A model generated the notes under the pieces. That model did no database searches. It was not told the DNA's origin and saw nothing but the letters and a program-made list of their open reading frames with translations. A DNA stretch of 64,000 nt from Mesotoga infera (lineage in GTDB: Bacteria; Thermotogota; Thermotogae; Petrotogales; Kosmotogaceae): positions 1,302,001-1,366,000 of the forward strand of contig NZ_LS974202.1 of NCBI RefSeq assembly GCF_900157305.1, given 5' to 3'. Of the stretch, positions 1 to 32,700 are shown piece by piece. The translations under genes and the position numbers were made by a program. Each line of letters opens with the position of its first letter. Position 1 is the first letter of the stretch.

Positions 1-306
1 CCCGAACCGTTCCAAGGAAAGGTTGATTTCTTCTCATGGCTTCCGGAAAGAAACGACGGCGAGGGCTTACCCTCAAACTATAATGAATTTTTTTCGCACA
101 TCCCCGGTAATACGAGGCTTGTGAGCTCCAGATACAGCATCGTAAACATAGGCGGGGTGGCGGTGAGGGATTTCACATACTCCCGGTGCAAGCTTTTTAG
201 CCCCCGGGGGCTGCCAGTAAGTTTTACCGATCCGTACAGCTTTTACACCGACCATGCGGAAAAGATCCCGCTCTGGTTCGCCGTTCAAAAGGAGGTGGCA
301 CAGTGA
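1..306 (+). CDS. Cas5-like protein, C-terminal part (5' end outside window)
   Basis: An open frame runs from the first base of the window to a TGA at 304-306, giving about 101 C-terminal residues. The stop overlaps the GTG start of the downstream cas3 by 4 bp, so the two are translationally coupled. Cas5 binds the crRNA 5' handle in type I Cascade, and cas5-cas3 adjacency is common in type I operons, including the second one in this window (16116-19180). No diagnostic Cas5 motif lies in the visible part, because the conserved RAMP N-terminus is off-window. The call therefore rests mainly on position. It could instead be another Cascade subunit. Confidence 0.5.
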   Translation, partial: PEPFQGKVDFFSWLPERNDGEGLPSNYNEFFSHIPGNTRLVSSRYSIVNIGGVAVRDFTYSRCKLFSPRGLPVSFTDPYSFYTDHAEKIPLWFAVQKEVAQ

Positions 307-2627
307 AAGCGGAAGAGTTTATGGCAAAGTCTTCTCCCGCAATAAGTCTTATAGATCACAGCAAGGATGTAGAAAGGATTGCGAGTGGCCTTGGCGAACC
401 AGCACTCAAACTTTTATCTTTGCTTCACGATGTGGGGAAGGTCTCGCCATCTTTTCAGAGAAAGCTGGGCAATGAGCGGTTCTCGGATATTGATCCGCGC
501 TTTCAGCTTGATGTGCCGCACAACATACTCTCGCTGTTCTATATAGACAAGCGCAGGCTATACGAGACATTTGCGCAGGACAGCCGACTGATACTCTCCG
601 CAATAGCCTTCCATCACTACAGGGAAAGCATGGGCCAGTACTTGTTAAGGCCTGGAAAACTGGCAGTTGCTGCTAAAGAAATGAAAGCTCACGAGGCGGA
701 GATAAATGAAGCTCTATCCGGTTTGGACAGAGAATTTGGCCTTGGCGGGCTCTTGAAAATTGACTCGCAGATGATTGAGAGTATAATCGGTGGGGCTTCC
801 TTGCTGGATATGGATATACTAATCCCCCCCTACAGGTTGGATTTCTCGATTATAAGGCAGGTTAAATCCATTGGGGCGACCCGCAGATTGGTCACACTCT
901 CTGGCTTCTTGAAATATTCGGACCATCTGGCCTCATTCCTCGAAGACGCCGGCCAGAGGGATTTCAAGATACCCGAGATCCCGGACAGATATCCGGCCGT
1001 TCTCTTGCAAATGAAAAACTCGGGAATTCCCGACAGCGATAATTGGCAGAAACGTAAAATGACAACCGGGAACACCATATTGCTCGCGGGAACTGGCAGC
1101 GGGAAGAGCCTCTTCGCGCTCATGTGGGCCGGAAACAGGCAAATGATTTTCACTCTTCCTCTCAGGGCGGCGGTTAATGCTATGTACGGAAACGTGTCCA
1201 AAATTCTTGGGAGTGATACTACCGGACTTCTACACTCTGACGCCAATCTGCAGACCGACCGAAATGACGAAGAGCTGAACGGGTTCACTCTCGATCTGGC
1301 AAGGCAGCTTTCCCTGCCAAATATAATCACCACCGGTGATCAAATATTCCCTTCGGCCTTGAAATATCCGGGATACGACAGGATCTACGCCATAGCCTCC
1401 AGAAGCGCGGTAGTGATAGATGAAGTTCAAGCTTACAGCCCCGTAGCATCTGCCGTGGTCGTAAAGCTGCTGGAAGACATATCCGCCATGGGAGGAAAAT
1501 TCCTTCTCATGACCGCCACACTCCCGCTTCATATAAAAGAGGAAATAGAGGCGAGGTGTACCCTGAACGGTGGCTTTGAATTTGTTGACATGTACGGTGA
1601 GCTCTTCGGAGGTACCAGGAAACACAGGATAGCGGTCGTTGGAAAGCCGTTGACAGAATCTGTGCCTGAGATCCTGGCCCGCTTGGGCGAGGGGAAAAAG
1701 GTCCTCGTAATAGCCAACACAGTCAAGCGGGCACAGGAGATATATCAAAAGCTCAAGGACGAAAATGGCGACACAAAAGAAAGCATCAGGCTTCTTCATT
1801 CAAGGCTGACTATGGAAGATAGGATGGAAAAGGAAAAAGAGGTTCTGGAAAAATTCCCTAACAGCCTGGAAGGCGAACCGGGAATACTCGTCTCCACGCA
1901 AGTGGTAGAGGCCTCGCTCGATTTATCTTTCGATTATCTATATACCGACATATCTCCAATAGACAGCCTTGTGCAAAGGATGGGAAGAGTCCTTCGGCAC
2001 ATACGCGAACCATTTGAGTACAAGGGCAGTGCCAATGTAATCATCCATGTGGCTCAAAATAAGGGAAAGATAGCAAACACAGAAGTCTATAACAATAGCT
2101 TGGTGGAATCCACCCTAAAAGCCCTTGCGAAATCTGCCGGAGTGGATAATTTTATACCCGAGCTCGGCGAAATGTACACTATTGAAGAGCCTCTAACCGA
2201 AGAAGACAAAAAAGAGCTGATCGAAACGGTTTTCTCAAGTTTGAAAGGAAGCGACTATCTAAACGAATTTGAAGAAGCGCTAAAGATTCTGGAGAGCGGC
2301 TGGTTGTCCGACAGGAAAGAAGAAGCACGTCGCATCTTCAGGGATATTTCTCAGACCGCTGTTATCCCGGAAACCCGTCTGAACGAAGCTGTGAAGTCGA
2401 TAAGAGAAATGATAGGAATGGCTGACTGGAAAGGGTTCAAGAAAAACATAGTGGCTAAATTTGTGGTGAATGTGAGCCAGAATTCCCTCTGGAAAAGGGA
2501 AAAAACGGAACTGGTGAAACTGCTGGAACGTAGTTTTGGTATTAGCGACAGAAAACTGCTCCGTTACGCTAAAGGGATATACGTTGTAAAAGGTTTTACA
2601 TACGACAGAGAGCTCGGCTTGAAATAA
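303..2627 (+). CDS. cas3: CRISPR-associated helicase/nuclease Cas3 (HD + DEAD-like helicase), first type I system
   Basis: This 774-aa protein is a full-length Cas3 that unwinds and degrades DNA recruited by Cascade. The N-terminal HD nuclease domain shows H42-D43 in LLHDVGK, a second His pair at 104-105 (AFHHYRE) and D207-H208 (KYSDHLAS). The SF2 helicase follows: Walker A GTGSGKS at 263-269, DEVQ at 373-376, MTATLP near 403-408, and the C-terminal VVEASLD and QRMGRVLRH motifs. The start is GTG at 303, with GGAGG at 291-295, 7 nt upstream. It overlaps the preceding cas5-like gene and is the last cas gene before array 1. No cas4/cas1/cas2 follows it, unlike the second cas3 here. It is clearly different in sequence from the Cas3 at 16835, so the two systems are not recent duplicates. 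Confidence 0.93.
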   Translation: MKAEEFMAKSSPAISLIDHSKDVERIASGLGEPALKLLSLLHDVGKVSPSFQRKLGNERFSDIDPRFQLDVPHNILSLFYIDKRRLYETFAQDSRLILSAIAFHHYRESMGQYLLRPGKLAVAAKEMKAHEAEINEALSGLDREFGLGGLLKIDSQMIESIIGGASLLDMDILIPPYRLDFSIIRQVKSIGATRRLVTLSGFLKYSDHLASFLEDAGQRDFKIPEIPDRYPAVLLQMKNSGIPDSDNWQKRKMTTGNTILLAGTGSGKSLFALMWAGNRQMIFTLPLRAAVNAMYGNVSKILGSDTTGLLHSDANLQTDRNDEELNGFTLDLARQLSLPNIITTGDQIFPSALKYPGYDRIYAIASRSAVVIDEVQAYSPVASAVVVKLLEDISAMGGKFLLMTATLPLHIKEEIEARCTLNGGFEFVDMYGELFGGTRKHRIAVVGKPLTESVPEILARLGEGKKVLVIANTVKRAQEIYQKLKDENGDTKESIRLLHSRLTMEDRMEKEKEVLEKFPNSLEGEPGILVSTQVVEASLDLSFDYLYTDISPIDSLVQRMGRVLRHIREPFEYKGSANVIIHVAQNKGKIANTEVYNNSLVESTLKALAKSAGVDNFIPELGEMYTIEEPLTEEDKKELIETVFSSLKGSDYLNEFEEALKILESGWLSDRKEEARRIFRDISQTAVIPETRLNEAVKSIREMIGMADWKGFKKNIVAKFVVNVSQNSLWKREKTELVKLLERSFGISDRKLLRYAKGIYVVKGFTYDRELGLK

Positions 2628-2905: not shown

Positions 2906-5900
2906 GTTTCGAATCAACCAAAGAGGGATATAAACATTGCAGACGACTATGCACAACTAGACGTGATTAGAGTTTCGAATCAACCAAAGAGGGATATAAA
3001 CATGGTTGTAGTACCATCTGTATATACAAATTGGATTCTCGTTTCGAATCAACCAAAGAGGGATATAAACCCACACTTTATGACAATGTTTTCAGTTCCG
3101 TTCAGGGTTTCGAATCAACCAAAGAGGGATATAAACGCTTTACCTACGACCCTACTCTTGTAGAGGCCGTGTTTCGAATCAACCAAAGAGGGATATAAAC
3201 TAGTATTTTTCAAGCTCTTTCTTCACATCGTAGAGCGAGTTTCGAATCAACCAAAGAGGGATATAAACCTTCTCTCTTTTCCACGACGTTGCGCAAGCGA
3301 GCTGCGCCGTTTCGAATCAACCAAAGAGGGATATAAACACTGTGATTGAGAACTCTGGCAGATTGATTGTGTCGTTTCGAATCAACCAAAGAGGGATATA
3401 AACAACGAAAGAGCAACAGGAAGTTTTGAGTCTGGCGAGGTTTCGAATCAACCAAAGAGGGATATAAACTCAGGTGAGTTTCAATTTCGCCTGATAATAT
3501 TAGGGTTTCGAATCAACCAAAGAGGGATATAAACAAAATCAGTTCCCCGGCGGAGAGGCTTATACTTTTGATCGTTTCGAATCAACCAAAGAGGGATATA
3601 AACAAAGCTCGAACGTGAGCACGCCCGCACTCGGACTTCCGTTTCGAATCAACCAAAGAGGGATATAAACCGCGCCCCTCTATGAACTTCTTTCTGAGTG
3701 ACTTCAGTTTCGAATCAACCAAAGAGGGATATAAACCGACCGGCGGGATCCCCTCGAAAAACTCGACGATGTGTTTCGAATCAACCAAAGAGGGATATAA
3801 ACGTTCTATTGTCTTCGTGAATGCCGCGTCCGCTTCTTGTTTCGAATCAACCAAAGAGGGATATAAACTACTTCAATTGCCGAGAAGTGTGCGTGAAGGA
3901 TTCTGTTTCGAATCAACCAAAGAGGGATATAAACTTCAAACTGTCGTTTTCAGAGTCCGTCGGACACGTTTCGAATCAACCAAAGAGGTATATAAACACC
4001 GACACAGTCGGTACAAATGCAACTACCAGCTACGTTTCGAATCAACCAAAGAGGGATATAAACCTTCTCTTTTTTCGACGACATTTCGGAGGCGAGCTAC
4101 ACGTTTCGAATCAACCAAAGAGGGATATAAACGTTTGCGCTGATTCCGGCCCTCTCGGCCAGTTCTGTTTCGAATCAACCAAAGAGGGATATAAACCGTC
4201 ATCCCACCATTCGTGTCTTGTTGCAGAGACGGTTTCGAATCAACCAAAGAGGGATATAAACACAACATGAGGGACTACCCAAACATAATACTGTATTGCG
4301 TTTCGAATCAACCAAAGAGGGATATAAACTTGCACGAAGCGGTACACGCAATGTGTGACACATTTCAGTTTCGAATCAACCAAAGAGGGATATAAACTTG
4401 TGATATTTCCGGGGCCATAAAGATATATCCCCCGTTTCGAATCAACCAAAGAGGGATATAAACGCAAGCCGGCGACAATAAAGATAGACGGTCCGAGTTT
4501 CGAATCAACCAAAGAGGGATATAAACTCTTTGCCGAGATGTCTCTGGATGACATGCCCTGGCGTTTCGAATCAACCAAAGAGGGATATAAACAAGGTACA
4601 GATTTTTTACCTGAAGGAGAAGTGTCTGGTTTCGAATCAACCAAAGAGGGATATAAACATATAAAAATTTTTCGTCGTAACAATAGGTTTGTTAGCGTTT
4701 CGAATCAACCAAAGAGGGATATAAACATATACCAGTGCATTTCTAACTGGAATGATTTCTCGTTTCGAATCAACCAAAGAGGGATATAAACGTAGGCCCG
4801 TCTCCGATCTCGTTGATATAGAGAAAGTTTCGAATCAACCAAAGAGGGATATAAACTCTTCAAATGTCTGATAGAAAAGAAGCATCTGGTCGTTTCGAAT
4901 CAACCAAAGAGGGATATAAACCTCTCAACGACATCTCGGGATATGCCAGAAGCGGCGTTTCGAATCAACCAAAGAGGGATATAAACTACCTATTGATGAA
5001 GACTTCCCGAGTTTCGAGCAGGTTTCGAATCAACCAAAGAGGGATATAAACTCGGTCGAGTGATGTACTCCGTGCAGGCTGAGTGTTTCGAATCAACCAA
5101 AGAGGGATATAAACCTCTGACGAAAGCCTCTGAAAGTACGGGCGCTCCGTTTCGAATCAACCAAAGAGGGATATAAACTTCCGGCCCTCTCGGCCAATTC
5201 CTCTTGAGACAGTTTCGAATCAACCAAAGAGGGATATAAACCGAAACCGAGAAGCTCTCAAAAGCCAAAGACAATCGTTTCGAATCAACCAAAGAGGGAT
5301 ATAAACTATCTACGCACACCTCGAAAATCAATGGACTAGCGTGTTTCGAATCAACCAAAGAGGGATATAAACCCGGTATACCTATACGATCATTCAGGAA
5401 TTACCGTTTCGAATCAACCAAAGAGGGATATAAACTTCTCCGCGAGAGCCATGAAAACGCTTGCATACGCCCTTGTTTCGAATCAACCAAAGAGGGATAT
5501 AAACAGGAGAGGCTGGACTCAATAGGAAAATCCGAGAACGGTTTCGAATCAACCAAAGAGGGATATAAACTAACAATATAATCAGGATATTTATCTAGCT
5601 CCTCTAGTTTCGAATCAACCAAAGAGGGATATAAACCCGATCCAGCCTTGATATGATTGGCCTCTATGGCGTCAGCCGTTTCGAATCAACCAAAGAGGGA
5701 TATAAACAATGTCTATCTTTGTCATCTGCAAACTCTATATTGTTTCGAATCAACCAAAGAGGGATATAAACCCAAACAGCTTGATGAATTTCGAGCTGTG
5801 ATTGCTTTGTTTCGAATCAACCAAAGAGGGATATAAACCCCAGAACGAGGCGAAAGACTTGAAGAAGATTGCTCAGTTTCGAATCAACCAAAGAGGGATA

Positions 5901-6566
5901 TAAACTTCTCCGCGAGAGCCATGAAAACGCTTGCATACGCCCTTGTTTCGAATCAACCAAAGAGGGATATAAACTAACAATATAATCAGGATATTTATCT
6001 AGCTCCTCTAGTTTCGAATCAACCAAAGAGGGATATAAACCCGATCCAGCCTTGATATGATTGGCCTCTATGGCGTCAGCCGTTTCGAATCAACCAAAGA
6101 GGGATATAAACAATGTCTATCTTTGTCATCTGCAAACTCTATATTGTTTCGAATCAACCAAAGAGGGATATAAACTATCTATATATTCACGTTCTTTTGT
6201 AGGAGGGTATAGTTTCGAATCAACCAAAGAGGGATATAAACGTGAAGTGTTGTCGCTGTTCGCACAGGAAACACGCGAGTTTCGAATCAACCAAAGAGGG
6301 ATATAAACACATTCCGAATACCCCTGGATGATCGCAAACATCGAGTTTCGAATCAACCAAAGAGGGATATAAACTTGCTGGCTACCGCATGGATAGCCAG
6401 CGTAAAGCAGTTTCGAATCAACCAAAGAGGAATATAAACCTTCGATCTCTGTTTCTCGTAGGAGGCAAACATGGTTTCGAATCAACCAAAAAGGAATGTA
6501 AACTCCAAAGATAAACTTGAGCTGAAGATTATAACGTTTCGAATCAACCAAATAGGAATGATAAAC
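2906..6566 (+). CRISPR. CRISPR array 1: 56 repeats of 30 nt, 55 spacers (hand count)
   Basis: The repeat begins GTTTCGAATCAACCAAAGAG and ends GGGATATAAAC (30 nt). Spacers are about 33-41 nt. The first repeat starts at 2906, next to the leader. One internal variant at 3968 has a G-to-T change (GAGGTATATAAAC). The last three repeats, at 6410, 6474 and 6536, are progressively degenerate (GGAATATAAAC, GGAATGTAAAC, then a 31-nt GGAATGATAAAC), marking the old, leader-distal end. Spacers 39, 41, 42 and 43 recur exactly as spacers 46-49. The array follows the first cas3. Its repeat shares the ends and several internal positions with the array 2 repeat (ACC, GAGG, AAAC). All protein-like frames across this region are repeat read-through. 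Confidence 0.99.
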
Positions 6567-9409: not shown

Positions 9410-9450
9410 GAGACGTTGTGAGTAGTAGGTCGCGAGCCGGCAAGAGCTAG

Positions 9451-9911
9451 ATGCCGGATCAGGTCCGGCATGACGGGAGGGGCTGTCATCCCGGGCTCCG
9501 ACCCGGGATCCACTCCTTAGAAAACCGTGATTCTGAGTCAAGCTCAGAATGACGGGAAGAAGGAAAGACCGGGATCCTGACTTGGAGCACGCCAGGATGA
9601 CCCGAAGGGGCCATCATCCCGTAGTGTGCCAATCCTGTCATCCCGTAGTGCCTGTCCTGATGAGCCTGCCCTGAAATGATCCTATTCAGGGATCTTATTC
9701 AGGGTCATCTCGTTAACGCCCCACTCATGTCATCCCGTAATGCTCTTATACGGGATCTCGCTCTTCTCGCTCTTTCGAAGGACCGGGATGCCGGATCAGG
9801 TCCGGCATGACGTGAAGGAGGAAGAACGTGATTCTGGCTAGGAACATGCCAGAATGACGTTAGGGGGCTGTCATCCCGGGCTCCGACCCGGGATCCACTC
9901 CTTAGAAAACC
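9451..9911. repeat. REP-like palindromic repeat block (left of intron)
   Basis: This is a mosaic of short palindromic modules found in four other blocks here. The modules include GATGCCGGATC..GTCCGGCATGAC, GTCATCCCGGGCTCC with its inverted partner CCCGGGATCC, GATTCTGAGTCAAGCTCAGAATGAC, and CGTAATGC..CGGGATC. The unit CCACTCCTTAGAAAACC followed by GTGATTCTGAGTC at about 9510-9545 is an uninterrupted copy. A second copy starting at about 9868 is cut after AAAACC by the group II intron. There is no coding content; the short open frames here are repeat read-through. Confidence 0.85.
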
Positions 9912-11846: not shown

Positions 11847-12017
11847 GTGATTCTGAGTCAAGCTCAGAATGACGGGAAGAAGGAAAGATCGGGATCCTGA
11901 CCAGGAGCACGTCAGGATGACGTTAGGGGACTGTCATCCCGTGGAGCCTGTCCTGAAGAGCCTGCCCTGGAATGATCTTATTCAGGGATCAAATTCAGGA
12001 CTCTTATACGGGATCTC
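11847..12017. repeat. REP-like repeat block (right of intron)
   Basis: This continues the repeat unit cut by the intron: GTGATTCTGAGTCAAGCTCAGAATGAC at once after the intron 5' end, then modules GGATCCTGACC..GTCAGGATGAC and CTTATTCAGG..TTCAGG. The flank matches the neighbouring unbroken copy at 9522-9600 (GGGAAGAAGGAAAG), which shows the insertion caused no flank loss. Confidence 0.85.
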
Positions 12018-12632
12018 ATGTCGACATCAACAGTAAAACAAGAAAAACACCTGTAGAAAATGTGAAAAGCATCGATAGGAATAGGTGTGAAATCCCCCTC
12101 ATTATAAACTTCCGGACAAGTAAAAATATTCCTACAAAATGGAACTTGTGTATCTTTGGGCTTATACAAACTAAATCAAGAGTGCTATTCATATCTATTA
12201 GGACGCCTCCTGGCTTTTGATAGGTATGACTGCGTATTTATCTTAAGACAGGAGCATCCTTTTTCAATTTTTTCTCTTCATCTTTTTCTTGATAACTTGC
12301 TAACTTGGCACAGGTCCAGGATGAGGCACCATATACTAGAGAAAATGTAGAATTTGTAATTCTTTCATTCTTTGTCGAGAAATATATCAATAATCGCCTT
12401 TACTTCCCACTTAATGGGCGCAGAGGGCTTTCTTTTTCTTTGGAAGACGTGAAGAAATGCGATAAGATTAAGTGCGATTATATTTTGCTAATAATTTACA
12501 AACAATGTGAATACATAAGAAATATGTCTTTTTGACCTACGTCATAGCTCATATCATAAATAATGTTTCAATCGCTTCTATTTAATCTAAAAGGAACATC
12601 TATAACAATACTTGTATCATGGAGGATGTGTT
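12018..12632. promoter_or_regulatory. AT-rich region upstream of the type I-B cas operon
   Basis: No supported gene lies in this 615-bp stretch. It is markedly more AT-rich than its surroundings. A candidate promoter near its end has TTGACC at 12532-12537 and, 17 nt later, CATAAA/TAAAT at 12555-12562. From there it is about 70 nt to the cas6 start. A 76-codon open frame at 12305-12535 has no ribosome binding site and no recognisable content, so I leave it unannotated. The region could be a long regulatory leader or decayed sequence. Confidence 0.35.
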
Positions 12633-13367
12633 TTGAGACTAAGAGCTGTTTTCGACAACGAAAAAGGGATTTCTCTTCCCCTTAGTTATTCATATCTTCT
12701 TCAATCAGCGATATATGATGCACTTTCAAATTTGATTCCAGATAGTCATGATTTTGGATTGAATGTCAATGGAAGAATTTTGAGACCATTCACGTTCTCT
12801 CGGCTTGCCGGCCAAAGCCGACAGATTAAAGAGGGCTTTATAAGCTTTACTCCACCAATAAATCTGCATTTTTCATCGCCTCTTGAAGATTTCGCACAGG
12901 CCTTTGCAAACGGGCTGCTTAAAAACGGCGGAATGGAACTCAAAGGAGAAAAACTCGAACTGAAATCTATAGAAGTTGAGCCTGAACCACCTAATATAGG
13001 CTCTATAGATGCAAGAACAATCTCCCCTATCACAATTTATTCGACTCTTACAACACCCGATGGAAAAAAGAAGACTTACTTCTACAACCCGACAGAAAAG
13101 GACTTTACTGTTCAGCTCAAAGAAAATCTCAATAGAAAGGCAATCGCACTGGGTAGCCCTGTAAGAGCGGGAGAATCCTTCTCCTTCAAACTTGCTTCAA
13201 GACCAATTCAGCGTATTGTGAAATACAAAGACTTCGTCCAGATCGCCTGGGATTTCAGCTTCAAGTTGAATACAGATCCAGAACTGATAGCGATAGCTTT
13301 CGACTGGGGGTTGGGTTCAAAGAATGCGCAGGGTTTTGGAATGATAGAAATCGTAGAAAGGAGGTGA
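12633..13367 (+). CDS. cas6: CRISPR-associated endoribonuclease Cas6
   Basis: This 244-aa RAMP protein is expected to cut the pre-crRNA inside each repeat, leaving an 8-nt 5' handle (ATTGAAAC for array 2; ATATAAAC if it also serves array 1). The start chosen is TTG at 12633, because GGAGG at 12621-12625 lies 7 nt upstream; the longer open frame from 12612 would begin before that RBS. Evidence is the two-RAMP-fold size, the N-terminal RLRAVF strand, and the C-terminal glycine-rich loop GLGSKNAQGFGMIEI typical of Cas6. It is the first gene of the I-B operon. Its stop overlaps the Shine-Dalgarno sequence of cas8b. It is the only cas6 in the window. Confidence 0.92.
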   Translation: MRLRAVFDNEKGISLPLSYSYLLQSAIYDALSNLIPDSHDFGLNVNGRILRPFTFSRLAGQSRQIKEGFISFTPPINLHFSSPLEDFAQAFANGLLKNGGMELKGEKLELKSIEVEPEPPNIGSIDARTISPITIYSTLTTPDGKKKTYFYNPTEKDFTVQLKENLNRKAIALGSPVRAGESFSFKLASRPIQRIVKYKDFVQIAWDFSFKLNTDPELIAIAFDWGLGSKNAQGFGMIEIVERR

Positions 13368-13371
13368 CAAG

Positions 13372-15132
13372 GTGCTCAAATCGACCTATGACATTGGCCA
13401 AATAGTGGCCAAAGGAAAAGACGAAACACAAATGTACATAACTGATATTGGGGATGCTTACATTCACGAATTGGCCATAATACTCATAAAGAACGGAGAA
13501 ACACTCCAATATTCCGGTTGTGAAAAAAGAGAGAAGACGCGCCGCAACTATCTCTTCCGTGAGAAAAAGGGGAACATCAAAATTCCTATCTCCCTTACTC
13601 TAAGGGATGCCGGTAAAGGAGCAGAAGTAATTCTAGAAAAGTTCATCAATTTCGGCGAACACAACAAAACTCCTATTGCCAGCAAAGTGGCTAGCGCTCT
13701 TTTAGAGTCAAAAGTAGCTATCTGCACATCCCTCGATGAGATGGCAGGAAATCTTCCAAAAAAGGAGGGAAGATTCTACACAGTTGTAATAAGAGAAGCA
13801 GACAGGGAATTATACCCTGGAGATCTTGATGAATTCAAAGAAATCTTCCTGAGAAACATTGTCAGTATGCCAAGTGATAATACTGGAATCTGCTTTGTTT
13901 GTGGAGAGGAGAAAGGCATCGGAATGAAGGCGAGCGACATTTTCAAGTTCGCATCTTTCGACAAGCCCGGGTTTGCCCACGAGATGGACGACAAAAACTA
14001 CTATGTGAACATGCCTCTCTGTGAAGATTGCTTCTCAAAAATTTCTCTTGGTAAGAGAGTTCTAGATGAAGAACTTTCAATGAATTTCTACGCATCGAAG
14101 GTTTACATCATACCAAGGTTTCACTCTTCAGATAATGAACTGCTCGAGGAGAAGGTCAACGAAATAAGAGACATAAAGAGAATTTCTGATCTAAAAGATA
14201 CTGTGAGAAAGGACAATCCTTACAGAAATTTTGAAACCTACATGCTTTATGACATTTCTGAAGGGTCATACTCCACTTTGAATTTCATCTTCTATACGGT
14301 GAACAATCAGGAGATGAAAATAAACCTCAGCATCTTAGACGTTCCTCCAAGTCGTTTGCGTAATATGTCTAGAAAGATTTCAGATATTGAAGGAGAACTA
14401 CGGAATGTGTTTGGTACACAAGAATACTCGCCTTCCGTTCTATTTGGATCGATGTACGACGTCTTCAAAGACAACCGACTGAGAACCTTTTTCGATTACA
14501 TTGAAGCGCTATTTAAAAATCAACGGGTTTCGTTAACCCCTTTAAAGAGAGGAACACTTGAACTCATTGGTTCAAAAAAACTCAGGGGTGAACCTTACGC
14601 CACCAAAGCCAAGCAACTTATCACTATTGCTCTTTTCATAGAAAGGCTTCAGCAAAATGTGGAAGGAGGTATCCCTTTAATGGAAAAAGACAGAGAAGAC
14701 AGGATCAAGGAATTCTTCGAAAAGTATCCGGCCTTTTTCAGGACTGATGAAGAGAAATTCCTTTTCATCTTAGGCCAGATTCACTCGAGAATTGCGAGAT
14801 TCCAAAGAGAGAAAAATATCGCAAGCACTGTCGATCTTAAGCTTAAGGCTTATAACATGAGACCACTAGACTTCATGAATCACTTTAAGGATCTAAAATG
14901 GAAAACGACACAGTACTCTAACGAAATGGATTTTACCAGAGTGTACGGACCAATCATGAACCTCTTTCAGATAGCCGACAAATACCTTATTCCAAGCGGC
15001 TATGACTGGAAAGCTTCTATTGAAGATTTGAATTATGCCTTCTTGGCTGGAGAGCTAGCAACTGGAGTCTTCAGGAGAGAAACCGATCAACTTGAACTTG
15101 AAACAGATACAGTTCAGGAAATTGAACAATAG
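13372..15132 (+). CDS. cas8b: Type I-B large Cascade subunit Cas8b (TM1802/Csh1-like)
   Basis: At 586 aa this is the usual size of TM1802-type Cas8b, the large subunit that recognises the PAM and recruits Cas3. A zinc-binding pair is visible: CFVC at about residues 174-177 and CEDC near 216-219, with a conserved loop between. The GTG start at 13372 follows AGGAGGTGA with good spacing. The context (cas6 upstream, Csh2-like cas7 downstream) fixes subtype I-B. The C-terminal residues (ELETDTVQEIEQ) are acidic and probably disordered. No truncation or frameshift is visible. Confidence 0.9.
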   Translation: MLKSTYDIGQIVAKGKDETQMYITDIGDAYIHELAIILIKNGETLQYSGCEKREKTRRNYLFREKKGNIKIPISLTLRDAGKGAEVILEKFINFGEHNKTPIASKVASALLESKVAICTSLDEMAGNLPKKEGRFYTVVIREADRELYPGDLDEFKEIFLRNIVSMPSDNTGICFVCGEEKGIGMKASDIFKFASFDKPGFAHEMDDKNYYVNMPLCEDCFSKISLGKRVLDEELSMNFYASKVYIIPRFHSSDNELLEEKVNEIRDIKRISDLKDTVRKDNPYRNFETYMLYDISEGSYSTLNFIFYTVNNQEMKINLSILDVPPSRLRNMSRKISDIEGELRNVFGTQEYSPSVLFGSMYDVFKDNRLRTFFDYIEALFKNQRVSLTPLKRGTLELIGSKKLRGEPYATKAKQLITIALFIERLQQNVEGGIPLMEKDREDRIKEFFEKYPAFFRTDEEKFLFILGQIHSRIARFQREKNIASTVDLKLKAYNMRPLDFMNHFKDLKWKTTQYSNEMDFTRVYGPIMNLFQIADKYLIPSGYDWKASIEDLNYAFLAGELATGVFRRETDQLELETDTVQEIEQ

Positions 15133-15153
15133 AACTCTAAGGAGGAGATGAAA

Positions 15154-16104
15154 ATGTCAATTAAGAACCGTCACGAAATTTTGTTTATCTATGATGTGAA
15201 AGATGGAAATCCAAACGGAGATCCGATGGATAGCAATAAGCCTAGGATGGATGTAGCAACTGGTGTAAATATAGTTTCTGATGTTCGACTGAAGAGAACT
15301 ATTCGAGATCATCTAGCGGAAAAAGGCGAAGAGCTCTTTGTGTCAGGAGATCCAATAACCTCGGAGAAGAGGGCTTCTCTCTTGATAACTGATCTTACGG
15401 ATGAAACCTACAATAAAAAAGCGGTTGAAGAAGCCCTCAAATTGCATAAACGAGAAGGGGCATCGAAGCTTCTTCTTGAGAAATGTATAGACTTGCGACT
15501 CTTTGGTGGAACAGTACCATTGACAGGATTAAACATGTCAATCACAGGACCCGTTCAGTTTCGTTTTGGTAGATCACTGCACGTGGTCGATCCTGTATTC
15601 ACGCAAGGAACAGCCGCTTTTGTATCACAGGAAGGAAAGGAGCAAAGGAGCTTTAGGGAAGAGTGGACGCTCAACTATTCTTGTATAGCATTTTACGGAG
15701 TGATAAATCAGAATACAGCCCGGCATACGTTAATGAGTGATTTGGATCTCAATAAGATGCTTGATGCCATATGGAATGGCACTAGGGATCTCATCACTCG
15801 CTCCAAGATGGAGCAGCTCCCACGATTGCTCCTAGATGTTGTGTATAACGAGGGAGCCAACTTCCATATTGGAGAGCTCGACAAAGGAATCAAGTTTCAA
15901 TCAGAAATAATGGAAGAGAAAGTCAGAGGCGTATCTGATTTCAAACTGGAGATATCAGGTCTCAAAGAGATGATTACTAAATACCACAGCAGAATACAGG
16001 AGATAAGATATAAGGTTGATCCCAGACTGAAGTTGGTGGAAAACGGTTCACCCTTCGATCTAGAAAATCTGCTCGAAGGAAAAATGAAACAATTGGCAGA
16101 GTGA
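15154..16104 (+). CDS. cas7: Type I-B Cascade backbone subunit Cas7 (Csh2-like)
   Basis: This protein of about 316 aa forms the helical backbone of Cascade along the crRNA spacer. It begins with the characteristic Csh2 motif EILFIYDVKDGNPNGDP, then DVRLKRTIRDHL. A mid-region GTVPLTGLNMSITGPVQFRFG and a stretch DPVFTQGTAAF are also typical of the family. Two ATG codons, at 15148 and 15154, are in frame; GGAGG at 15141-15145 lies 8 nt from the second and too close to the first, so 15154 is preferred. It follows cas8b by about 20 nt and precedes cas5 by 11 nt. Confidence 0.95.
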   Translation: MSIKNRHEILFIYDVKDGNPNGDPMDSNKPRMDVATGVNIVSDVRLKRTIRDHLAEKGEELFVSGDPITSEKRASLLITDLTDETYNKKAVEEALKLHKREGASKLLLEKCIDLRLFGGTVPLTGLNMSITGPVQFRFGRSLHVVDPVFTQGTAAFVSQEGKEQRSFREEWTLNYSCIAFYGVINQNTARHTLMSDLDLNKMLDAIWNGTRDLITRSKMEQLPRLLLDVVYNEGANFHIGELDKGIKFQSEIMEEKVRGVSDFKLEISGLKEMITKYHSRIQEIRYKVDPRLKLVENGSPFDLENLLEGKMKQLAE

Positions 16105-16115
16105 GGTGAGGCCTT

Positions 16116-16838
16116 ATGAAGGTCCTCGCTTTTGATATTTCGAGCGACTATGCCCATTTTCGACAACCATACTCGACAACATCCTCTTTGACGTATGCGA
16201 TTCCTCCCAGAACAGCAGCTCTGGGTATAGTAGGAGCAATAGTTGGTATAGACAGTGGTGGCTTTGGTCAGAGTAAACACATTGCCGAGCTTGAAAAGGC
16301 AAATACAAAAATCGGCGTGCGGTTAATGAGAAAGGTCGAAAAGACACGCTTCAGTATTAACTATTCATATACAAAAGCTGATGCCTCGACCAAAAATGTA
16401 CAGCATATCCAAGTCCCTGTTGAAATGGTAAAAGACCCAGTGTATAGATTCTATGTAACTGCAGATGTCAAACTTCTGGAAAAACTTGAAGACATGACGA
16501 TCAATTCTGAATGCTATTACACTCCATATCTCGGAATAAGCGAATTCATAGCCCAAGTAAAGTATGTTGGAACTTACAGCGCTGAAGTAGAAACAGCAGA
16601 CAAAATCTACACAGCTGTTCAAATGGCGAAGAGAACTAATCTTCTTTTCTCTAATGGTCAAAAGATATTCATGGAAACTCACGCAGCATCCATGAACAGT
16701 GAAAGGAGAGTTACCAAATACGTAGAAGTAGCTTATGAAGAGGAGGGTAATCCTTTGAAGCTGAGGTCTGTTGATCCTGATTCTCTGGTAGTGAAGATCT
16801 TTACAGAAACTGGCGAAGAGGCAGTGATGCTCTGGTGA
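16116..16838 (+). CDS. cas5: Type I-B Cascade subunit Cas5
   Basis: This 240-aa protein has the Cas5 N-terminal signature: MKVLAFDISSDYAHFRQPYS, then the glycine/proline loop YAIPPRTAALGIVGAIVGID. Cas5 holds the crRNA 5' handle at the foot of Cascade. GAGGTGAGG precedes the ATG. The stop TGA overlaps the GTG start of cas3 by 4 bp, the same arrangement as cas5-cas3 at the left window edge. Confidence 0.94.
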   Translation: MKVLAFDISSDYAHFRQPYSTTSSLTYAIPPRTAALGIVGAIVGIDSGGFGQSKHIAELEKANTKIGVRLMRKVEKTRFSINYSYTKADASTKNVQHIQVPVEMVKDPVYRFYVTADVKLLEKLEDMTINSECYYTPYLGISEFIAQVKYVGTYSAEVETADKIYTAVQMAKRTNLLFSNGQKIFMETHAASMNSERRVTKYVEVAYEEEGNPLKLRSVDPDSLVVKIFTETGEEAVMLW

Positions 16839-19180
16839 GTACCGTAAGATCTCACCAGGAAAGGCTTCTGGAACACCATACACTTGGCGTATTAACTTTG
16901 ATGGCTGAAGAAGTCGAAATCACCAGTAGATTCATTGACTATGAAAACTTCTTCGGTATTACCCGATCAGAGCTCAATACTCTCGTCAAGGGAATTTCCC
17001 TTTTCCACGACCTAGGAAAAGCGAGTAGCTACTTCCAGAAACATCTCTCTGGAATGAAAGTTGATAACGGGTTATCTCAACATGCAGTAATTGGGTCAAT
17101 AGCTTTAGGACATTATCTTGATGGCAAAATACCTGATGAATTGGGAGCGACCATCTTGGTAGCGATGACAGTCGTAAAACATCATCATGGTAAAGCTAGG
17201 CCCCTTGAATCACTTATAGAATCCTTTGATGATAATCAAGGAGAGATAGAAAAAATTATCGGCACACTTAATAACGCATATCTTGATTGGATGGAGAAAT
17301 CAATAGGGGAAAGGGTGAACCTAGATATGCCCTCCCTGGTTCCGAAGATAATAAAGTGGAAGAGAAACTATAGAAAGTTTAGAGAGAAAGCCGGTATCAG
17401 AAATTATGTGCTGTTCGAATACCTGTTTTCTTTACTCACATGGGCCGACAGAGTGGATGCAGCGTTCAATGACAATTACAACCACGAAAGGCAACATATT
17501 TCGCCGAATATTGTGGACATTTTCAGAACCTCAGAAGGATTTGATGAACCAAATACAGATATAGATCTGTTGAGAAACGCTTTCTATGAGGAAGCTATCT
17601 CGAATCTTGAATTCACTGTTGGTTCAATTAAAGGAAGGACTGGAATTGGTAAGACGCTAGCCACACTCTCTCTGGCACTCAAGAAGAGAGAGAGAACTCA
17701 GAAAGAAAAAGGCTACATTCCCCGAATTCTTTACTGTTTACCCTTTCTAAGCATAATTGACCAAACTTACGAAACTATCTCAAAAGTCCTCAAAACATCT
17801 GGAATTATAGAAACGTCGGACATATTGATGCAACAACATCATCTAACAGACCTTTCATATTCGAAGCAAATAAATGGAGGTGAGACCGAAGACTATGATA
17901 CTTATCTCGCAGATATACTTCTCAATTCCTGGGATAGTGAAATTGTCATAACAACTTTCGTGAGTATTTTCCATTCGATGCTTACAGAAAAACGAAATAC
18001 ACGCTTCTTCAGACTTCCTGGTTCTATTATCATACTGGATGAAATCCAGGCTGTCCCTCCAAAATACTGGAAAGTAATTAGCGAAGTACTTGAACACCTT
18101 GCGAAATGGGGAGGCACAAAGATAATTTTCTCAAGCGCAACGATTCCACAGCCATTCTTCGTTTCTTCTCTTCCTCTGGTGCGTAGAGAGTACAGCCTTG
18201 ACAGGTATGACGTGAAATACCTCGGAAAGATGAGCATGGAAGAATTTAAATACAGCATTCTTGAAGAAGCTGTCTCCGCAGCAATTAATAAGAAGAAAGC
18301 CTTGATGGTAGTCGCAAACACAATAAACTGCTGCAAAGAGTTATACGAATATCTAAAGGACTCAAGAAATATCAGCGATGAGAAAATCCACTGTTTATCA
18401 TCGAATTTGCCACCCGCAGTCAGAAAAAACGTAATTAAAAATATAAAGAGAAAGAAAGGTTTTCAAGTCCTTGTGACTACTCAACTGATCGAGGCAGGTG
18501 TGGATATCAGTTTTGACTATTGTATAAGAGACCTCGGGCCTCTCGACAGCATTCTTCAAGTTGCAGGACGAGTGAATCGTTCGTGCGAAAAGAAGCGTGG
18601 TGAACTGTTGATTGTAGATCTTGTGAAGGAAGATTCAGGAAGATCTTTCTCCTGGATCTACAATAGCACGATAATATGGGCAACTCGAGATATTTTGAGC
18701 AATTTGGGGGCTTCTGTAGATGAACCGAAGATATACGAACTGGGAGATAAGTACTTCACTCAATTGGTGAACAAAGGACTTGAAAACGAATCTCTTGAGC
18801 TTTTGGAAGCTCTTGTCAATCTGGATTTTGACAAAATATCTGACTTCAGCCTGATTGAACAGATAAAAGGCTCTGTTACCATCCCGGTTTTTTTGGAAAT
18901 CAATAATGACGCAAAACATTTCTGGAAAACTTATTGCGAAGTTCTAAGTGAAATACCCCCCAAAGAAAACAAATACCAATATCTAGCGCGAAAAAAGCAG
19001 GCTATAAGAAACTTGGCACCCTATGTAGTTAACCTTAGAGTCTTCTACTATCCCGGAGCAAAAACCTATGCTCTACCAGATATTCAACACGGCTTCAGCT
19101 ATGTATCCTCAGATGACTTGAAATATTACTACGATCCTAAAACCGGCCTGAAATCAGATGATGGGAGTTTGTTCCTGTGA
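16835..19180 (+). CDS. cas3: CRISPR-associated helicase/nuclease Cas3, type I-B
   Basis: This 781-aa protein carries an N-terminal HD nuclease (H14/H15, H58-D59 in FHDLGKA, H83, KHHHGK at 115-120, D205 in TWADRVD) and an SF2 helicase. The helicase motifs are Walker A GRTGIGKT at 267-274, DEIQ at 402-405, FSSATIP, QLIEAGVDISFD and QVAGRVNRS. It degrades DNA bound by the I-B Cascade. The GTG start is inside the end of cas5 (4-bp overlap) and the stop overlaps the cas4 GTG start, consistent with one transcript. All active-site motifs are present. Confidence 0.95.
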   Translation: MSTVRSHQERLLEHHTLGVLTLMAEEVEITSRFIDYENFFGITRSELNTLVKGISLFHDLGKASSYFQKHLSGMKVDNGLSQHAVIGSIALGHYLDGKIPDELGATILVAMTVVKHHHGKARPLESLIESFDDNQGEIEKIIGTLNNAYLDWMEKSIGERVNLDMPSLVPKIIKWKRNYRKFREKAGIRNYVLFEYLFSLLTWADRVDAAFNDNYNHERQHISPNIVDIFRTSEGFDEPNTDIDLLRNAFYEEAISNLEFTVGSIKGRTGIGKTLATLSLALKKRERTQKEKGYIPRILYCLPFLSIIDQTYETISKVLKTSGIIETSDILMQQHHLTDLSYSKQINGGETEDYDTYLADILLNSWDSEIVITTFVSIFHSMLTEKRNTRFFRLPGSIIILDEIQAVPPKYWKVISEVLEHLAKWGGTKIIFSSATIPQPFFVSSLPLVRREYSLDRYDVKYLGKMSMEEFKYSILEEAVSAAINKKKALMVVANTINCCKELYEYLKDSRNISDEKIHCLSSNLPPAVRKNVIKNIKRKKGFQVLVTTQLIEAGVDISFDYCIRDLGPLDSILQVAGRVNRSCEKKRGELLIVDLVKEDSGRSFSWIYNSTIIWATRDILSNLGASVDEPKIYELGDKYFTQLVNKGLENESLELLEALVNLDFDKISDFSLIEQIKGSVTIPVFLEINNDAKHFWKTYCEVLSEIPPKENKYQYLARKKQAIRNLAPYVVNLRVFYYPGAKTYALPDIQHGFSYVSSDDLKYYYDPKTGLKSDDGSLFL

Positions 19181-19674
19181 TTGAGATCAATGGAAGTCTC
19201 ATACTCTCGTACTCTAATTGCTATAGAGAAGCCTGGCTAATGGCTCACAGAATTATTCCGGAACAGGATAACACGTTCATTGCCCTGGGTCGTCTCATTC
19301 ACGAAACCTCCTACGAAAACAGAGGAGAGAAAGATATCGCCATAGATAACATTCGGCTGGACATGGTCGAAGAAAAAAAGGGAAGAACTATCGTCAGCGA
19401 GGTAAAGAAGTCTAAATACTCCCTTGAAGGAGCCAGAGATCAGTTGCTTTTCTACCTGCTGCGCCTGAAAGAAATGGGAGTCGAAGCTAATGGCCTGTTA
19501 CTAGTTCCAAAAGAGAAAAAGAAAATCGAAGTTAGCCTTAACCCGGATGAAGAAACCAGGCTGAAGAAAATGTGCGAAGAGATTCAGGATCTTGTTGAGG
19601 GGCCAATACCGCCTCTCGAAAGACCGCAAAACAAGTGCCAGAACTGCGCATACTACACTTATTGTTGGGTGTGA
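19177..19674 (+). CDS. cas4: CRISPR-associated exonuclease Cas4
   Basis: Cas4 trims prespacers and helps select PAM-containing ends with Cas1-Cas2. This 165-aa protein has the RecB-like nuclease residues H42, D62 and E75-x-K77 (SEVKKSK), the GARDQLLFYL helix, and four Fe-S cluster cysteines: C15 and C154/C157/C163 (CQNCAYYTYC). The start is a GTG overlapping the cas3 stop. Its presence fits the inference, from spacer overlaps in this window, that protospacer 5' ends are PAM-anchored. It lies 4 nt upstream of cas1. Confidence 0.95.
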   Translation: MIEINGSLILSYSNCYREAWLMAHRIIPEQDNTFIALGRLIHETSYENRGEKDIAIDNIRLDMVEEKKGRTIVSEVKKSKYSLEGARDQLLFYLLRLKEMGVEANGLLLVPKEKKKIEVSLNPDEETRLKKMCEEIQDLVEGPIPPLERPQNKCQNCAYYTYCWV

Positions 19675-19678
19675 TGAC

Positions 19679-20668
19679 ATGAAGCGAATGTTGTACCTCT
19701 TCACTTCGGGAAAGCTTTTGAGGATGAACAACACTCTTGTCTTCGAGAAAGAAGATGGAAAGAAGGTCCACCTTCCAGTCGAGCAGACGGATTCCATATG
19801 CGCTTTTGGAGAGTTGGATCTCAACAAAAGAGTATTGGAATTTCTGACCCAAAAACAGATCCCTCTCCACTTTTTCAATCGATACGACTACTATTCAGGG
19901 ACATACTATCCAAGGGAGCACCTCAATTCCGGCTTCCTGATACTTCAGCAGGTTAATTTCTACAACGATCCGGAGAAACGGCTTGACCTTGCGAAGAAAT
20001 TTGTCAGCGCCTCGATGACCAACATGCTTAATGTTCTGGCATACTACAATCGACGAGGAAAAGACCTGGAAAACGCGATCGAGAGCCTGAATTCATTGAA
20101 AGACCGACTGGTAGAAACTGCAAGCATCGACGAATCAATGGCCATAGAGGGCAACTTCAGAGATCTCTATTACAAGTGCTTTGATGCAATAATTGACAAC
20201 TCCAGCTTCGAGTTCGTTTCAAGAACAAGACAACCACCCCTGAATAGACTCAACGCCCTAATAAGCTTTGGAAACACGATGCTCTACACTACAGTTCTAG
20301 GAGAGATCTATCGCACCCATCTCGATCCGAGAATTGGATACCTTCACACAACGAATTTCCGTAGCTTCTCTCTGAACCTGGATGTCGCTGAGGTCTTCAA
20401 ACCGATTCTCGTAGACCGTCTGATCTTCTCCCTGATAAACAAAAAACAGATTCAGGCCAAACACTTTGCGAAGCACCTTGAAGGCATTTATATGAACGAT
20501 GCCGGTAAGGAGACGTTCGTGAAGGAATATGACGAAAAGCTGAAGACAACGATCAAACACCCTGGGCTGAAGAGAAACGTCTCGTATCGCTATCTTATCC
20601 GTCTAGAGCTGTACAAAATAGAAAAGCACATCACAGGAGAGAAAGAGTATGTCCCATGGAAAGGATGA
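19679..20668 (+). CDS. cas1: CRISPR integrase Cas1
   Basis: This 329-aa protein has the N-terminal beta domain (RMLYLFTSGKL) and the catalytic helical domain with E157 (AIEGNFRDLYY), H223 (RIGYLHTTNFRSFSL) and D235/E238 (LDVAEVFKP). It integrates spacers at the leader-repeat junction with Cas2. The ATG at 19679 is preferred: the frame extends 29 codons upstream, but those overlap the Cas4 coding end out of frame and do not look like Cas1. It is the only cas1 in the window, so it is the best candidate to serve both arrays. Confidence 0.97.
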   Translation: MKRMLYLFTSGKLLRMNNTLVFEKEDGKKVHLPVEQTDSICAFGELDLNKRVLEFLTQKQIPLHFFNRYDYYSGTYYPREHLNSGFLILQQVNFYNDPEKRLDLAKKFVSASMTNMLNVLAYYNRRGKDLENAIESLNSLKDRLVETASIDESMAIEGNFRDLYYKCFDAIIDNSSFEFVSRTRQPPLNRLNALISFGNTMLYTTVLGEIYRTHLDPRIGYLHTTNFRSFSLNLDVAEVFKPILVDRLIFSLINKKQIQAKHFAKHLEGIYMNDAGKETFVKEYDEKLKTTIKHPGLKRNVSYRYLIRLELYKIEKHITGEKEYVPWKG

Positions 20669-20671
20669 AGG

Positions 20672-29752: not shown

Positions 29753-32700
29753 GCTTCCAGACTACCTATGAGGAATTGAAACACATTCGTGTACGCCGCT
29801 AATGAAGCGGAGATGACTAGCTTCCAGACTACCTATGAGGAATTGAAACACAAACTTTTCAACTTTGACGAGCATGAGAAGCTCGCTTCCAGACTACCTA
29901 TGAGGAATTGAAACAGGAACGCAAGCTGTCTATTGACGTTCTCTATCTTGCCGCTTCCAGACTACCTATGAGGAATTGAAACTAGTCGGCCCACTCGAAA
30001 CCTTCCAGTTTTTGAAGCTTCCAGACTACCTATGAGGAATTGAAACCTCCATACGTCTGAATATGCCTTGTACGAGTCGTTCCGCTTCCAGACTACCTAT
30101 GAGGAATTGAAACTCTCTAATCAGTTGTAATCGCTGAAATCTAGCTAAGCTTCCAGACTACCTATGAGGAATTGAAACCTCGGATACCAATAATCCCTAA
30201 AATACCCTTCCGGCTTCCAGACTACCTATGAGGAATTGAAACTGATGAAACTAACGCTTTTCCATATAAGAGCAAAGGCACGCTTCCAGACTACCTATGA
30301 GGAATTGAAACTTTCTACGCCTTCCACAGCCCTACGAAGGACTGCTCCTGCTTCCAGACTACCTATGAGGAATTGAAACTCGCGGCGGTCGAAGCCGAGA
30401 TCAAGGGTATCGCTTCCAGACTACCTATGAGGAATTGAAACGTCCACTTCTTGAGCGCTTCGTATCCGAGAATTATCTTTGCTTCCAGACTACCTATGAG
30501 GAATTGAAACCTGGATTCTGATCCATATATAAGGGAGTGGTGACGCTTCCAGACTACCTATGAGGAATTGAAACGCTTCTCTGCTATGTCAGTCACGGGC
30601 TTGGCTATGGCTTCCAGACTACCTATGAGGAATTGAAACACTTCTCCGTTTGTTTTGTTCCTACATATGACCTGCTTCCAGACTACCTATGAGGAATTGA
30701 AACCAGGCTTGCAAACTACGACATACGGTACAGAGACCGCTTCCAGACTACCTATGAGGAATTGAAACGCCAACGCTTCTTTGTCTTGCTTTTCCCATGC
30801 TGGCTTCCAGACTACCTATGAGGAATTGAAACTCTCGCCAGTCAACGTAGAGTTCGCCAGTCGTGTGCTTCCAGACTACCTATGAGGAATTGAAACTGAG
30901 CCATCTGATATTTCCAGACAGCTTCTTCACGCTTCCAGACTACCTATGAGGAATTGAAACACCAGCGCATAGAAAGCGCTGCTAAGTCTCTCTATCTCGC
31001 TTCCAGACTACCTATGAGGAATTGAAACATGTTGTATCAATGGTTGTAGTACCATCTGTATAGCTTCCAGACTACCTATGAGGAATTGAAACTAGTCAAA
31101 TTGAAGACCGAACCCAGGTACGAGACGGCTTCCAGACTACCTATGAGGAATTGAAACTCCGCTTCTGCCAGTCTGTCCACGAAAGCCATAGCCTCGCTTC
31201 CAGACTACCTATGAGGAATTGAAACACATTCGTGTACGCCGCTAACGAAGCTGAAATGACTAGCTTCCAGACTACCTATGAGGAATTGAAACTAAATTTT
31301 TTAGTAGGGGTAACGGTTTGGTTTGGCTTCCAGACTACCTATGAGGAATTGAAACCTATCATGAATACGAAACTGCTGGAGACTACGATGTTCAGCTTCC
31401 AGACTACCTATGAGGAATTGAAACAGTTCAACCCTGCCGACGAATGGGCCGTTCCTGCCGCTTCCAGACTACCTATGAGGAATTGAAACCCGTACAAGTC
31501 AAGACCATCGTTTCTATCATCGCGCTTCCAGACTACCTATGAGGAATTGAAACGCACCTCACAGGTGTGGGGAATGAAACATATCAGGCTTCCAGACTAC
31601 CTATGAGGAATTGAAACTCAGCTCCTGGAGAACTCGGGTATAAAGTCTCAGAGCTTCCAGACTACCTATGAGGAATTGAAACACGGCTTTGACACGGTAC
31701 TTGTATTTTCGCCACGCTTCCAGACTACCTATGAGGAATTGAAACTCGTGTTGACTTCTTTGAGCTTCCTTTGGTACTGCTTCCAGACTACCTATGAGGA
31801 ATTGAAACTCTTTTCTCCGGTCCATTTCAAACCGAGCCAGCCTAGAGCTTCCAGACTACCTATGAGGAATTGAAACACGAGAGCCGGGATTGTTTCGCTA
31901 GTTCCTGATGCATCCAGCTTCCAGACTACCTATGAGGAATTGAAACTCCAATTAGCTAGAAACGCTATTCCCATCGCAGCAGCTTCCAGACTACCTATGA
32001 GGAATTGAAACTTGAACCATTCATTGAGCGCGTACTTGTTGCTAGCGCTTCCAGACTACCTATGAGGAATTGAAACCCCAGAACCTCTCCAACATCACCG
32101 AGTGCTGACCAGAATGCTTCCAGACTACCTATGAGGAATTGAAACGAAAGAAACACGTGACCATCGAGCTGTTTGATGGCGCTTCCAGACTACCTATGAG
32201 GAATTGAAACTGCTCAAACGACAACAATACCGAGGAGAGGTCAAGCTTCCAGACTACCTATGAGGAATTGAAACATCGACCCGACCACCTCCTTTCTCCA
32301 CAGGCCCCCAGGCTTCCAGACTACCTATGAGGAATTGAAACGCACAAAGTATTCTCCGGAGATTCAGAAGCAGACGCGCTTCCAGACTACCTATGAGGAA
32401 TTGAAACCGGGCTTGGCTATGAACAGCACTGTCTCAAGCGTCGCTTCCAGACTACCTATGAGGAATTGAAACATCACAGCAGGGAGGACATTGTCCTTAG
32501 CCCACGCTTCCAGACTACCTATGAGGAATTGAAACGCTTGAGAATCTTTTCGGCTGCACGAATCGAGAGAGCTTCCAGACTACCTATGAGGAATTGAAAC
32601 CGTCGCTCGGGTCGGAGCTGACGAAGCTAATTTCACCGCTTCCAGACTACCTATGAGGAATTGAAACTCCCATACCAACCATTCAGGCATAGTCAAATTA

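What the first reader, a model, noticed from the sequence alone, without database searches (positions are those of the whole stretch)
4133..5211. PAM read from within the window: TCA (or TNA) 5' of the protospacer
When two spacers overlap head to tail, the upstream one shows the 5' flank of the other. Spacer 3002's flank from 31029 is GTATCA; spacer 32408's flank from 30575 is CAGTCA; spacer 5179's flank from 4133 is GCGCTGA. This gives TCA, TCA, TGA. Type I PAMs lie at this side, and the two arrays agree, which supports one shared PAM-selecting adaptation complex (Cas4-Cas1-Cas2).
Basis: partly seen in the sequence, partly recalled or inferred. Interest (0 to 1): 0.7.

Follow-up and report, generated by a model that had tools for sequence, protein, structure and literature searches.

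The report
PAM of two CRISPR arrays: TYA

Summary
The three overlaps are real (23/23, 21/23 and 14/14 bases) and the flanks read as stated. I mapped all spacers to IMG/VR phage contigs. 41 distinct window protospacers (at most 16% mismatch) give a 5' motif T-Y-A: TTA 14, TCA 13, TTG 4, TCG 2, others 8. Information is 1.34, 0.49 and 1.08 bits at -3, -2 and -1, and about 0 elsewhere, including the whole 3' side. T-N-A is found in 23/31 for array B (1.8 expected) and 6/10 for array A (0.5 expected). The arrays do not differ detectably, but array A has only ten sites. 'TCA' alone is too narrow. The genome has one cas1 (window 19.7-20.65 kb) and array A's operon has no cas1, cas2 or cas4, so shared adaptation is likely. 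PAM agreement by itself is weak proof of it. Three related Mesotoga genomes carry the same or nearly the same repeat but use other PAMs (TTA; TTG; TTG after TCA). The -1 base follows a recombined block (cas8b-cas7-cas5-cas3 plus the first ~48 codons of cas4), not cas1, cas2 or the repeat. In one relative, old spacers have TCA/TTA and new ones TTG, so that array appears to record a PAM change.

The parts
2906..6565 (+). CRISPR array A, repeat GTTTCGAATCAACCAAAGAGGGATATAAAC, 55 spacers (51 unique); degenerate repeats at the 3' end, so the leader is at the 2906 side
3002..3040 (+). spacer A3002; 5' flank GTATCA read from spacer B31029
4133..4166 (+). spacer A4133; exposes the 5' flank (CGCTGA) of spacer A5179
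5179..5211 (+). spacer A5179
4857..4891 (+). spacer A4857; perfect protospacers in two phage contigs, PAM TTA and TTG
303..2627 (+). cas3 of the array-A operon (preceded outside the window by cas6, cas8b1/cst1-like, cas7/cst2-like and cas5); no cas1, cas2 or cas4
12612..13367 (+). cas6 of the array-B operon; its 3' end is the left edge of the block that differs between relatives
13372..15132 (+). cas8b (TM1802/Csh1 family), the expected PAM reader in interference
15148..19180 (+). cas7, cas5, cas3 of the array-B type I-B operon
19177..19674 (+). cas4; codons 1 to about 48 belong to the swapped block in relatives, the rest to the conserved adaptation block
19679..20668 (+). cas1, the only cas1 in the genome
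20672..20941 (+). cas2
29753..38427 (+). CRISPR array B, repeat GCTTCCAGACTACCTATGAGGAATTGAAAC, 131 spacers; leader at the 29753 side
30575..30609 (+). spacer B30575; exposes the 5' flank (CAGTCA) of spacer B32408
31029..31062 (+). spacer B31029; exposes the 5' flank of spacer A3002
32408..32442 (+). spacer B32408
33067..33104 (+). spacer B33067; same 5' start as B38228 but a different 3' end; protospacer PAM TTA

Best explanation
The flanks are a genuine 5'-TYA-3' protospacer adjacent motif (T at -3, pyrimidine at -2, A at -1) used by both arrays. Shown: enrichment of the motif at -3..-1 only, a fixed 5' spacer boundary with a variable 3' end, no detectable difference between arrays, a single cas1 in the genome, and no adaptation genes in array A's operon. 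Inferred: the Cas4-Cas1-Cas2 encoded at 19177-20941 cuts and orients prespacers at TYA and inserts them into both arrays, whose leaders share ATAGTAA.GG next to the repeat. The I-B Cascades, through Cas8b, then read TYA in the target but not the AAC at the repeat end, so the arrays are not attacked. The -1 preference is set by the block cas8b-cas7-cas5-cas3 plus the Cas4 N-terminus, not by Cas1, Cas2 or the repeat.
For: Protospacer flanks against random positions in the same contigs: array B T-N-A 23/31 (1.76 expected, P=1e-22) and T-Y-A 21/31 (0.84 expected); array A T-N-A 6/10 (0.51 expected, P=3e-6), and 5/5 at no more than 6% mismatch. Bits at -3/-2/-1 are 1.34/0.49/1.08, and no more than 0.07 at any other position on either side, n=41. 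Reversed-spacer control: no hit below 0.24 mismatch fraction, against about 110 real spacers below it. Same-start pairs 30/51. Arrays A and B do not differ (Fisher P=0.44 for T-N-A, 0.65 for -1 A). One cas1 in the genome. Array A's operon is cas6-cas8-cas7-cas5-cas3 only. Leader ends alike. T. maritima I-B Cascade reads YYD (PMC13199841).
Against: Array A rests on 10 distinct protospacers, and its three flanks that are not TYR (ATA, CGA, CTA) are in diverged homologues (4-5 mismatches). Logos show retained spacers, so acquisition and later selection by interference cannot be told apart. TTG/TCG occur in 6/41, so A at -1 is a preference, not a rule. The phage set came from protein-guided searches and is not an unbiased sample.
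Confidence: 0.9

Rival explanations
1. The motif agreement reflects the targets' base composition or chance, not a PAM.
Against: Random positions in the same contigs predict 1.76 T-N-A of 31, against 23 seen. Other flank positions carry no information. Spacer starts coincide while 3' ends do not.
Confidence: 0.01
2. Each array was filled by its own adaptation machinery and the two happen to share a compatible PAM; array A's own cas1, cas2 and cas4 were lost.
For: Array A has a different repeat and a different Cas8/Cas7 family, and many type I-B systems have PAMs of the T-Y-A kind (Table 1 of PMC13199841).
Against: Only one cas1 in a complete genome. The arrays sample the same phages, and even overlapping positions (A3002/B31029, A4330/B37434). 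Leader ends are alike.
Confidence: 0.1
3. The PAM in the logos is set by interference or primed adaptation (Cas8b) rather than by the Cas4-Cas1-Cas2 complex.
For: G001 and G005 have 98% identical Cas1 and Cas2 and the same repeat but PAMs TTA and TTG (-1 A 24/27 against 4/43, P=1.3e-11). What differs is the effector block (Cas8b 36%).
Against: The swapped block also holds the first ~48 residues of Cas4, so Cas4 could carry the change. Array A has a different Cas8 and yet the same PAM as array B.
Confidence: 0.45

Closest known systems
Thermotoga maritima type I-B1 Cascade (PMC13199841)
   Same: Same Cas8b family (TM1802); its PAM YYD contains TYA and TYG; repeat end AAC, as here
   Different: That PAM was measured by binding and cleavage in vitro; here it is inferred from protospacers and is narrower (TYA)
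Hungateiclostridium thermocellum and Parageobacillus thermoglucosidasius type I-B (PAM TTN/TNA and TTA, Table 1 of PMC13199841)
   Same: Almost the same motif, with the repeat ending in AAC
   Different: Other hosts; one effector system considered per entry there, whereas two I-B effector operons here appear to share one adaptation module
Co-occurring CRISPR systems sharing adaptation machinery (PMC8482600)
   Same: One adaptation module serving arrays of several effectors, and PAM agreement used as evidence
   Different: The sharing described there is type I with type III; here two type I-B operons with different Cas8/Cas7 families, plus a type III operon with Csx11, in one genome

Membership tests
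Type I-B CRISPR-Cas (array B operon) | cas6-cas8b-cas7-cas5-cas3-cas4-cas1-cas2 with Cas8b/Csh-type proteins | tested here: met
   NCBIfam hits above cut-off for each gene
Type I-B CRISPR-Cas (array B operon) | PAM 5' of the protospacer, three bases, -2 a pyrimidine | tested here: met
   table of I-B PAMs
Type I-B CRISPR-Cas (array A operon) | cas6, cas8b, cas7, cas5 and cas3 of I-B type | tested here: met
   Cas6, Cas8b1/Cst1 (weak, 28.6 bits), Cas7/Cst2-DevR, and Cas3 above cut-off; the Cas5b model was below its cut-off but the general Cas5 model above it
Type I-B CRISPR-Cas (array A operon) | own adaptation genes | tested here: not met
   none in the operon; one cas1 in the genome
PAM-selecting Cas4-Cas1-Cas2 adaptation complex | spacer 5' boundary fixed at the PAM | tested here: met
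   30 of 51 overlapping pairs share the 5' start while 3' ends vary
PAM-selecting Cas4-Cas1-Cas2 adaptation complex | Cas4, not the effector, chooses the PAM | tested here: inconclusive
   the -1 base tracks a block holding both Cas8b and the Cas4 N-terminus
PAM-selecting Cas4-Cas1-Cas2 adaptation complex | acquisition activity | not testable with these tools
   needs an adaptation assay

The most novel reading that the evidence does not exclude
Within one genus, the PAM was switched by homologous recombination of one cassette, cas8b-cas7-cas5-cas3 plus the first ~48 codons of cas4, between systems that keep the same repeat (identical in three genomes, one base different in G004), Cas6, Cas1 and Cas2. 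Effector and the PAM-reading end of Cas4 would thus move together, keeping acquisition and interference matched. The array of relative G004 appears to record the switch: its old half has -1 A (11/12, mostly TCA, as in the window) and its new half has -1 G (10/13, mostly TTG, as in G005).
Probability: 0.6. Interest if true: 0.8.

Novelty: new member of a known kind. Interest (0 to 1): 0.55.

Why it matters
It fixes the targeting rule of this organism's CRISPR systems (5'-TYA) and shows that spacer-against-spacer overlaps can reveal a PAM before any virus is known. The comparison with relatives bears on an open question: how acquisition and interference stay on the same PAM when effector genes are exchanged. 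PAMs are often assigned from the repeat (PMC8482600); here the same repeat goes with three PAM preferences. The relatives form a natural allele-swap series that points at Cas8b or the Cas4 N-terminus and away from Cas1, Cas2 and the repeat, and one array may timestamp the change.

Tried and rejected
blastn of both arrays against the GenBank phage collection gave nothing. Two spacer-derived pattern scans of IMG/VR gave nothing; the route that worked was phage proteins, then whole contigs, then mapping every spacer. I first thought that C at -2 follows the Cas1/Cas4-C-terminal lineage (window and G004 against G001 and G005). Splitting the G004 array by age removed this: C at -2 is in 6/12 of old spacers and 1/13 of new ones. 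I considered that the G004 pattern reflects different phages in each half and rejected it: on one phage record, -1 A is 0/13 in new and 12/15 in old spacers (the split was chosen from the data, so the changepoint permutation P=0.0007 is the fair figure). A shift of -2 along the window's own array B is weak (P=0.02 only at lax mismatch) and is not claimed. A PDB sequence search with Cas4 found no relative, so I could not place the swapped N-terminus on a structure. Two literature searches aimed at a PAM switch by effector exchange returned no paper whose title or abstract describes it; the library is incomplete, so this is weak evidence of novelty.

Full report
Observation. The window lies in a complete 2.97 Mb genome. 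Nine other genomes of its genus are held. One of them, G001, has a 2,974,229 bp chromosome, which I recall as the length of Mesotoga prima MesG1.Ag.4.2 (memory, not tested), so I call the genus Mesotoga. Array A (2906-6565) has 55 spacers and array B (29753-38427) has 131, together the 186 of the finding. All three overlaps are real, with the flanks as written. The 14-base overlap is the weakest, with about 0.006 expected by chance over all comparisons. One further overlap (B31093 in B32668, 12/13) is at chance level and was not used.

Spacers that sample the same target share their first base far more often than any other alignment: 30 of 51 same-strand pairs have offset 0, while 3' ends differ by -7 to +6. 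Window examples are B33067/B38228, B35180/B36450, B36318/B37834, B29783/B31226 and A3269/A4064. This shows without any virus that the 5' boundary is set by sequence and the 3' end is not.

Protospacers. Searching the genus with concatenated spacers found a few targets. Proteins of those phages pulled related IMG/VR contigs, most of which I fetched whole. I then mapped all window spacers and 511 spacers from relatives with the same repeat type. The reversed-spacer control has no hit below 0.24 mismatch fraction, while about 110 real spacers have one. With at most 16% mismatch and one vote per protospacer, 41 distinct window sites give TTA 14, TCA 13, TTG 4, TCG 2 and others 8. Information is 1.34, 0.49 and 1.08 bits at -3, -2 and -1, and not above 0.07 at any other position on either side. 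Against random positions in the same contigs, T-N-A is 23/31 (1.76 expected) for array B and 6/10 (0.51 expected) for array A. At no more than 6% mismatch it is 12/14 and 5/5. The arrays do not differ (Fisher 0.44 for T-N-A, 0.65 for -1 A), though ten sites for array A give little power. The repeat ends in AAC, which differs from TYA at all three positions.

Who chooses the PAM. The genome has one cas1. Array A follows an operon cas6, cas8b1/cst1-like, cas7/cst2-like, cas5, cas3 with no adaptation genes. Array B follows cas6-8b-7-5-3-4-1-2 and a type III operon with Csx11. Both leaders share ATAGTAA.GG next to the repeat. Co-occurring systems that share adaptation are known (PMC8482600).

What the relatives add. 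Three other genomes carry B-type arrays: G001 and G005 with the identical repeat, G004 with one base different. Their PAMs differ: window TCA 11 and TTA 10 of 31; G001 TTA 19 of 27 and no TCA; G005 TTG 30 of 43, with -1 A in only 4; G004 TTG 8 and TCA 6 of 25. This holds on single phage records: on L137-L139 G001 has TTA 15 of 17 while G004 has TTG 10, TCA 4 and TTA 3 of 22; on L219-L220 the window has mostly TCA/TTA and G005 has TTG 30 of 42. So target composition is not the cause.

Which genes go with the difference. Cas8b is 81% identical between window and G001 and 89% between G004 and G005, but 35-36% across; Cas5 and Cas3 follow the same split (43-51% across), as does Cas7 (67-69%). Cas1 groups the other way: 97% for window and G004, 98% for G001 and G005. 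Between G001 and G005, DNA identity is 90-94% in most of cas6, falls to about 42-72% from the end of cas6 to the start of cas4, and is 88-98% from codon ~50 of cas4 through cas2. Cas4 itself is a mosaic: residues 1-48 are 45/48 identical between G004 and G005 and 39/48 between window and G001, against 32-36/48 across; residues 49-165 are 113/117 identical between G001 and G005. So -1 A against -1 G follows the block cas8b-cas7-cas5-cas3 plus the Cas4 N-terminus (24/27 against 4/43 for G001 and G005, P=1.3e-11). Cas1, Cas2, most of Cas4, Cas6 and the repeat are not the determinant. Within the block the data cannot separate Cas8b from the Cas4 N-terminus.

A recorded switch. In G004 the order of spacers matters. 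Leader-proximal (new) spacers have -1 A in 2/13 and leader-distal (old) ones in 11/12; changepoint permutation P=0.0007, or 0.00035 with lax mismatches. On one phage record it is 0/13 against 12/15 (split chosen from the data). The old half resembles the window (Fisher 0.41 for -1 A, 1.0 for -2 C) and the new half resembles G005 (0.68 for -1 G). The simplest account is that G004's ancestor had a window-like system, exchanged the effector block, and has since acquired TTG spacers. Joining of two array halves by recombination is not excluded. The other arrays show no such change in -1.

Known against new. A TYA-type PAM is ordinary for type I-B: T. maritima reads YYD, H. thermocellum TTN/TNA, P. 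thermoglucosidasius TTA (Table 1 of PMC13199841). What I did not find described is a PAM difference under an identical repeat that maps to an exchanged effector block with a Cas4 end, and an array that changes PAM part-way. The literature check was limited.

Limits. Logos show retained spacers, so selection by interference is included. The phage set was gathered through a few protein families. Array A has ten distinct sites. Relatives are anonymous genomes except by inference.

Noticed in passing
L131 (G004:C28:60001-80000), array at about 8939-17722, minus strand: PAM changes along the array: new half TTG, old half TCA/TTA, boundary between spacers 15182 and 14266.
   Followed up: yes
window 13290-19360 compared with L044, L047, L131 and L227: Block cas8b-cas7-cas5-cas3 plus the 5' end of cas4 is swapped between Mesotoga relatives; edges in the end of cas6 and at about codon 50 of cas4.
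   Followed up: yes
window 37969-38004: Spacer B37969 matches the 3' end of the genome's own tRNA-Phe gene with 2 mismatches (L157:8626-8661); flank GTG is not a PAM. Probably taken from a phage attachment site that copies the tRNA end.
   Followed up: partly
window 5436-6145: Four spacers of array A (5436, 5571, 5637, 5708) recur as 5906, 5975, 6041, 6112: a duplicated segment of the array lacking the spacers at 5505, 5772 and 5839.
   Followed up: no
window 22705-23850: IS4/IS701-type transposase on the minus strand lies inside the type III (Cmr-like, Csx11) operon and may interrupt a RAMP gene.
   Followed up: no
window 9912-11764: Group II intron with reverse transcriptase/maturase (9980-11305, minus strand) between array A and the array-B cas operon.
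   Followed up: no
L038, L040 (G001:C1:1700001-1760000): G001 has a further array with another repeat (ending ...CATAGTATGGAAAC); two of its spacers overlap window spacers B33979 and B34581 and expose the flanks TA and TTA.
   Followed up: partly
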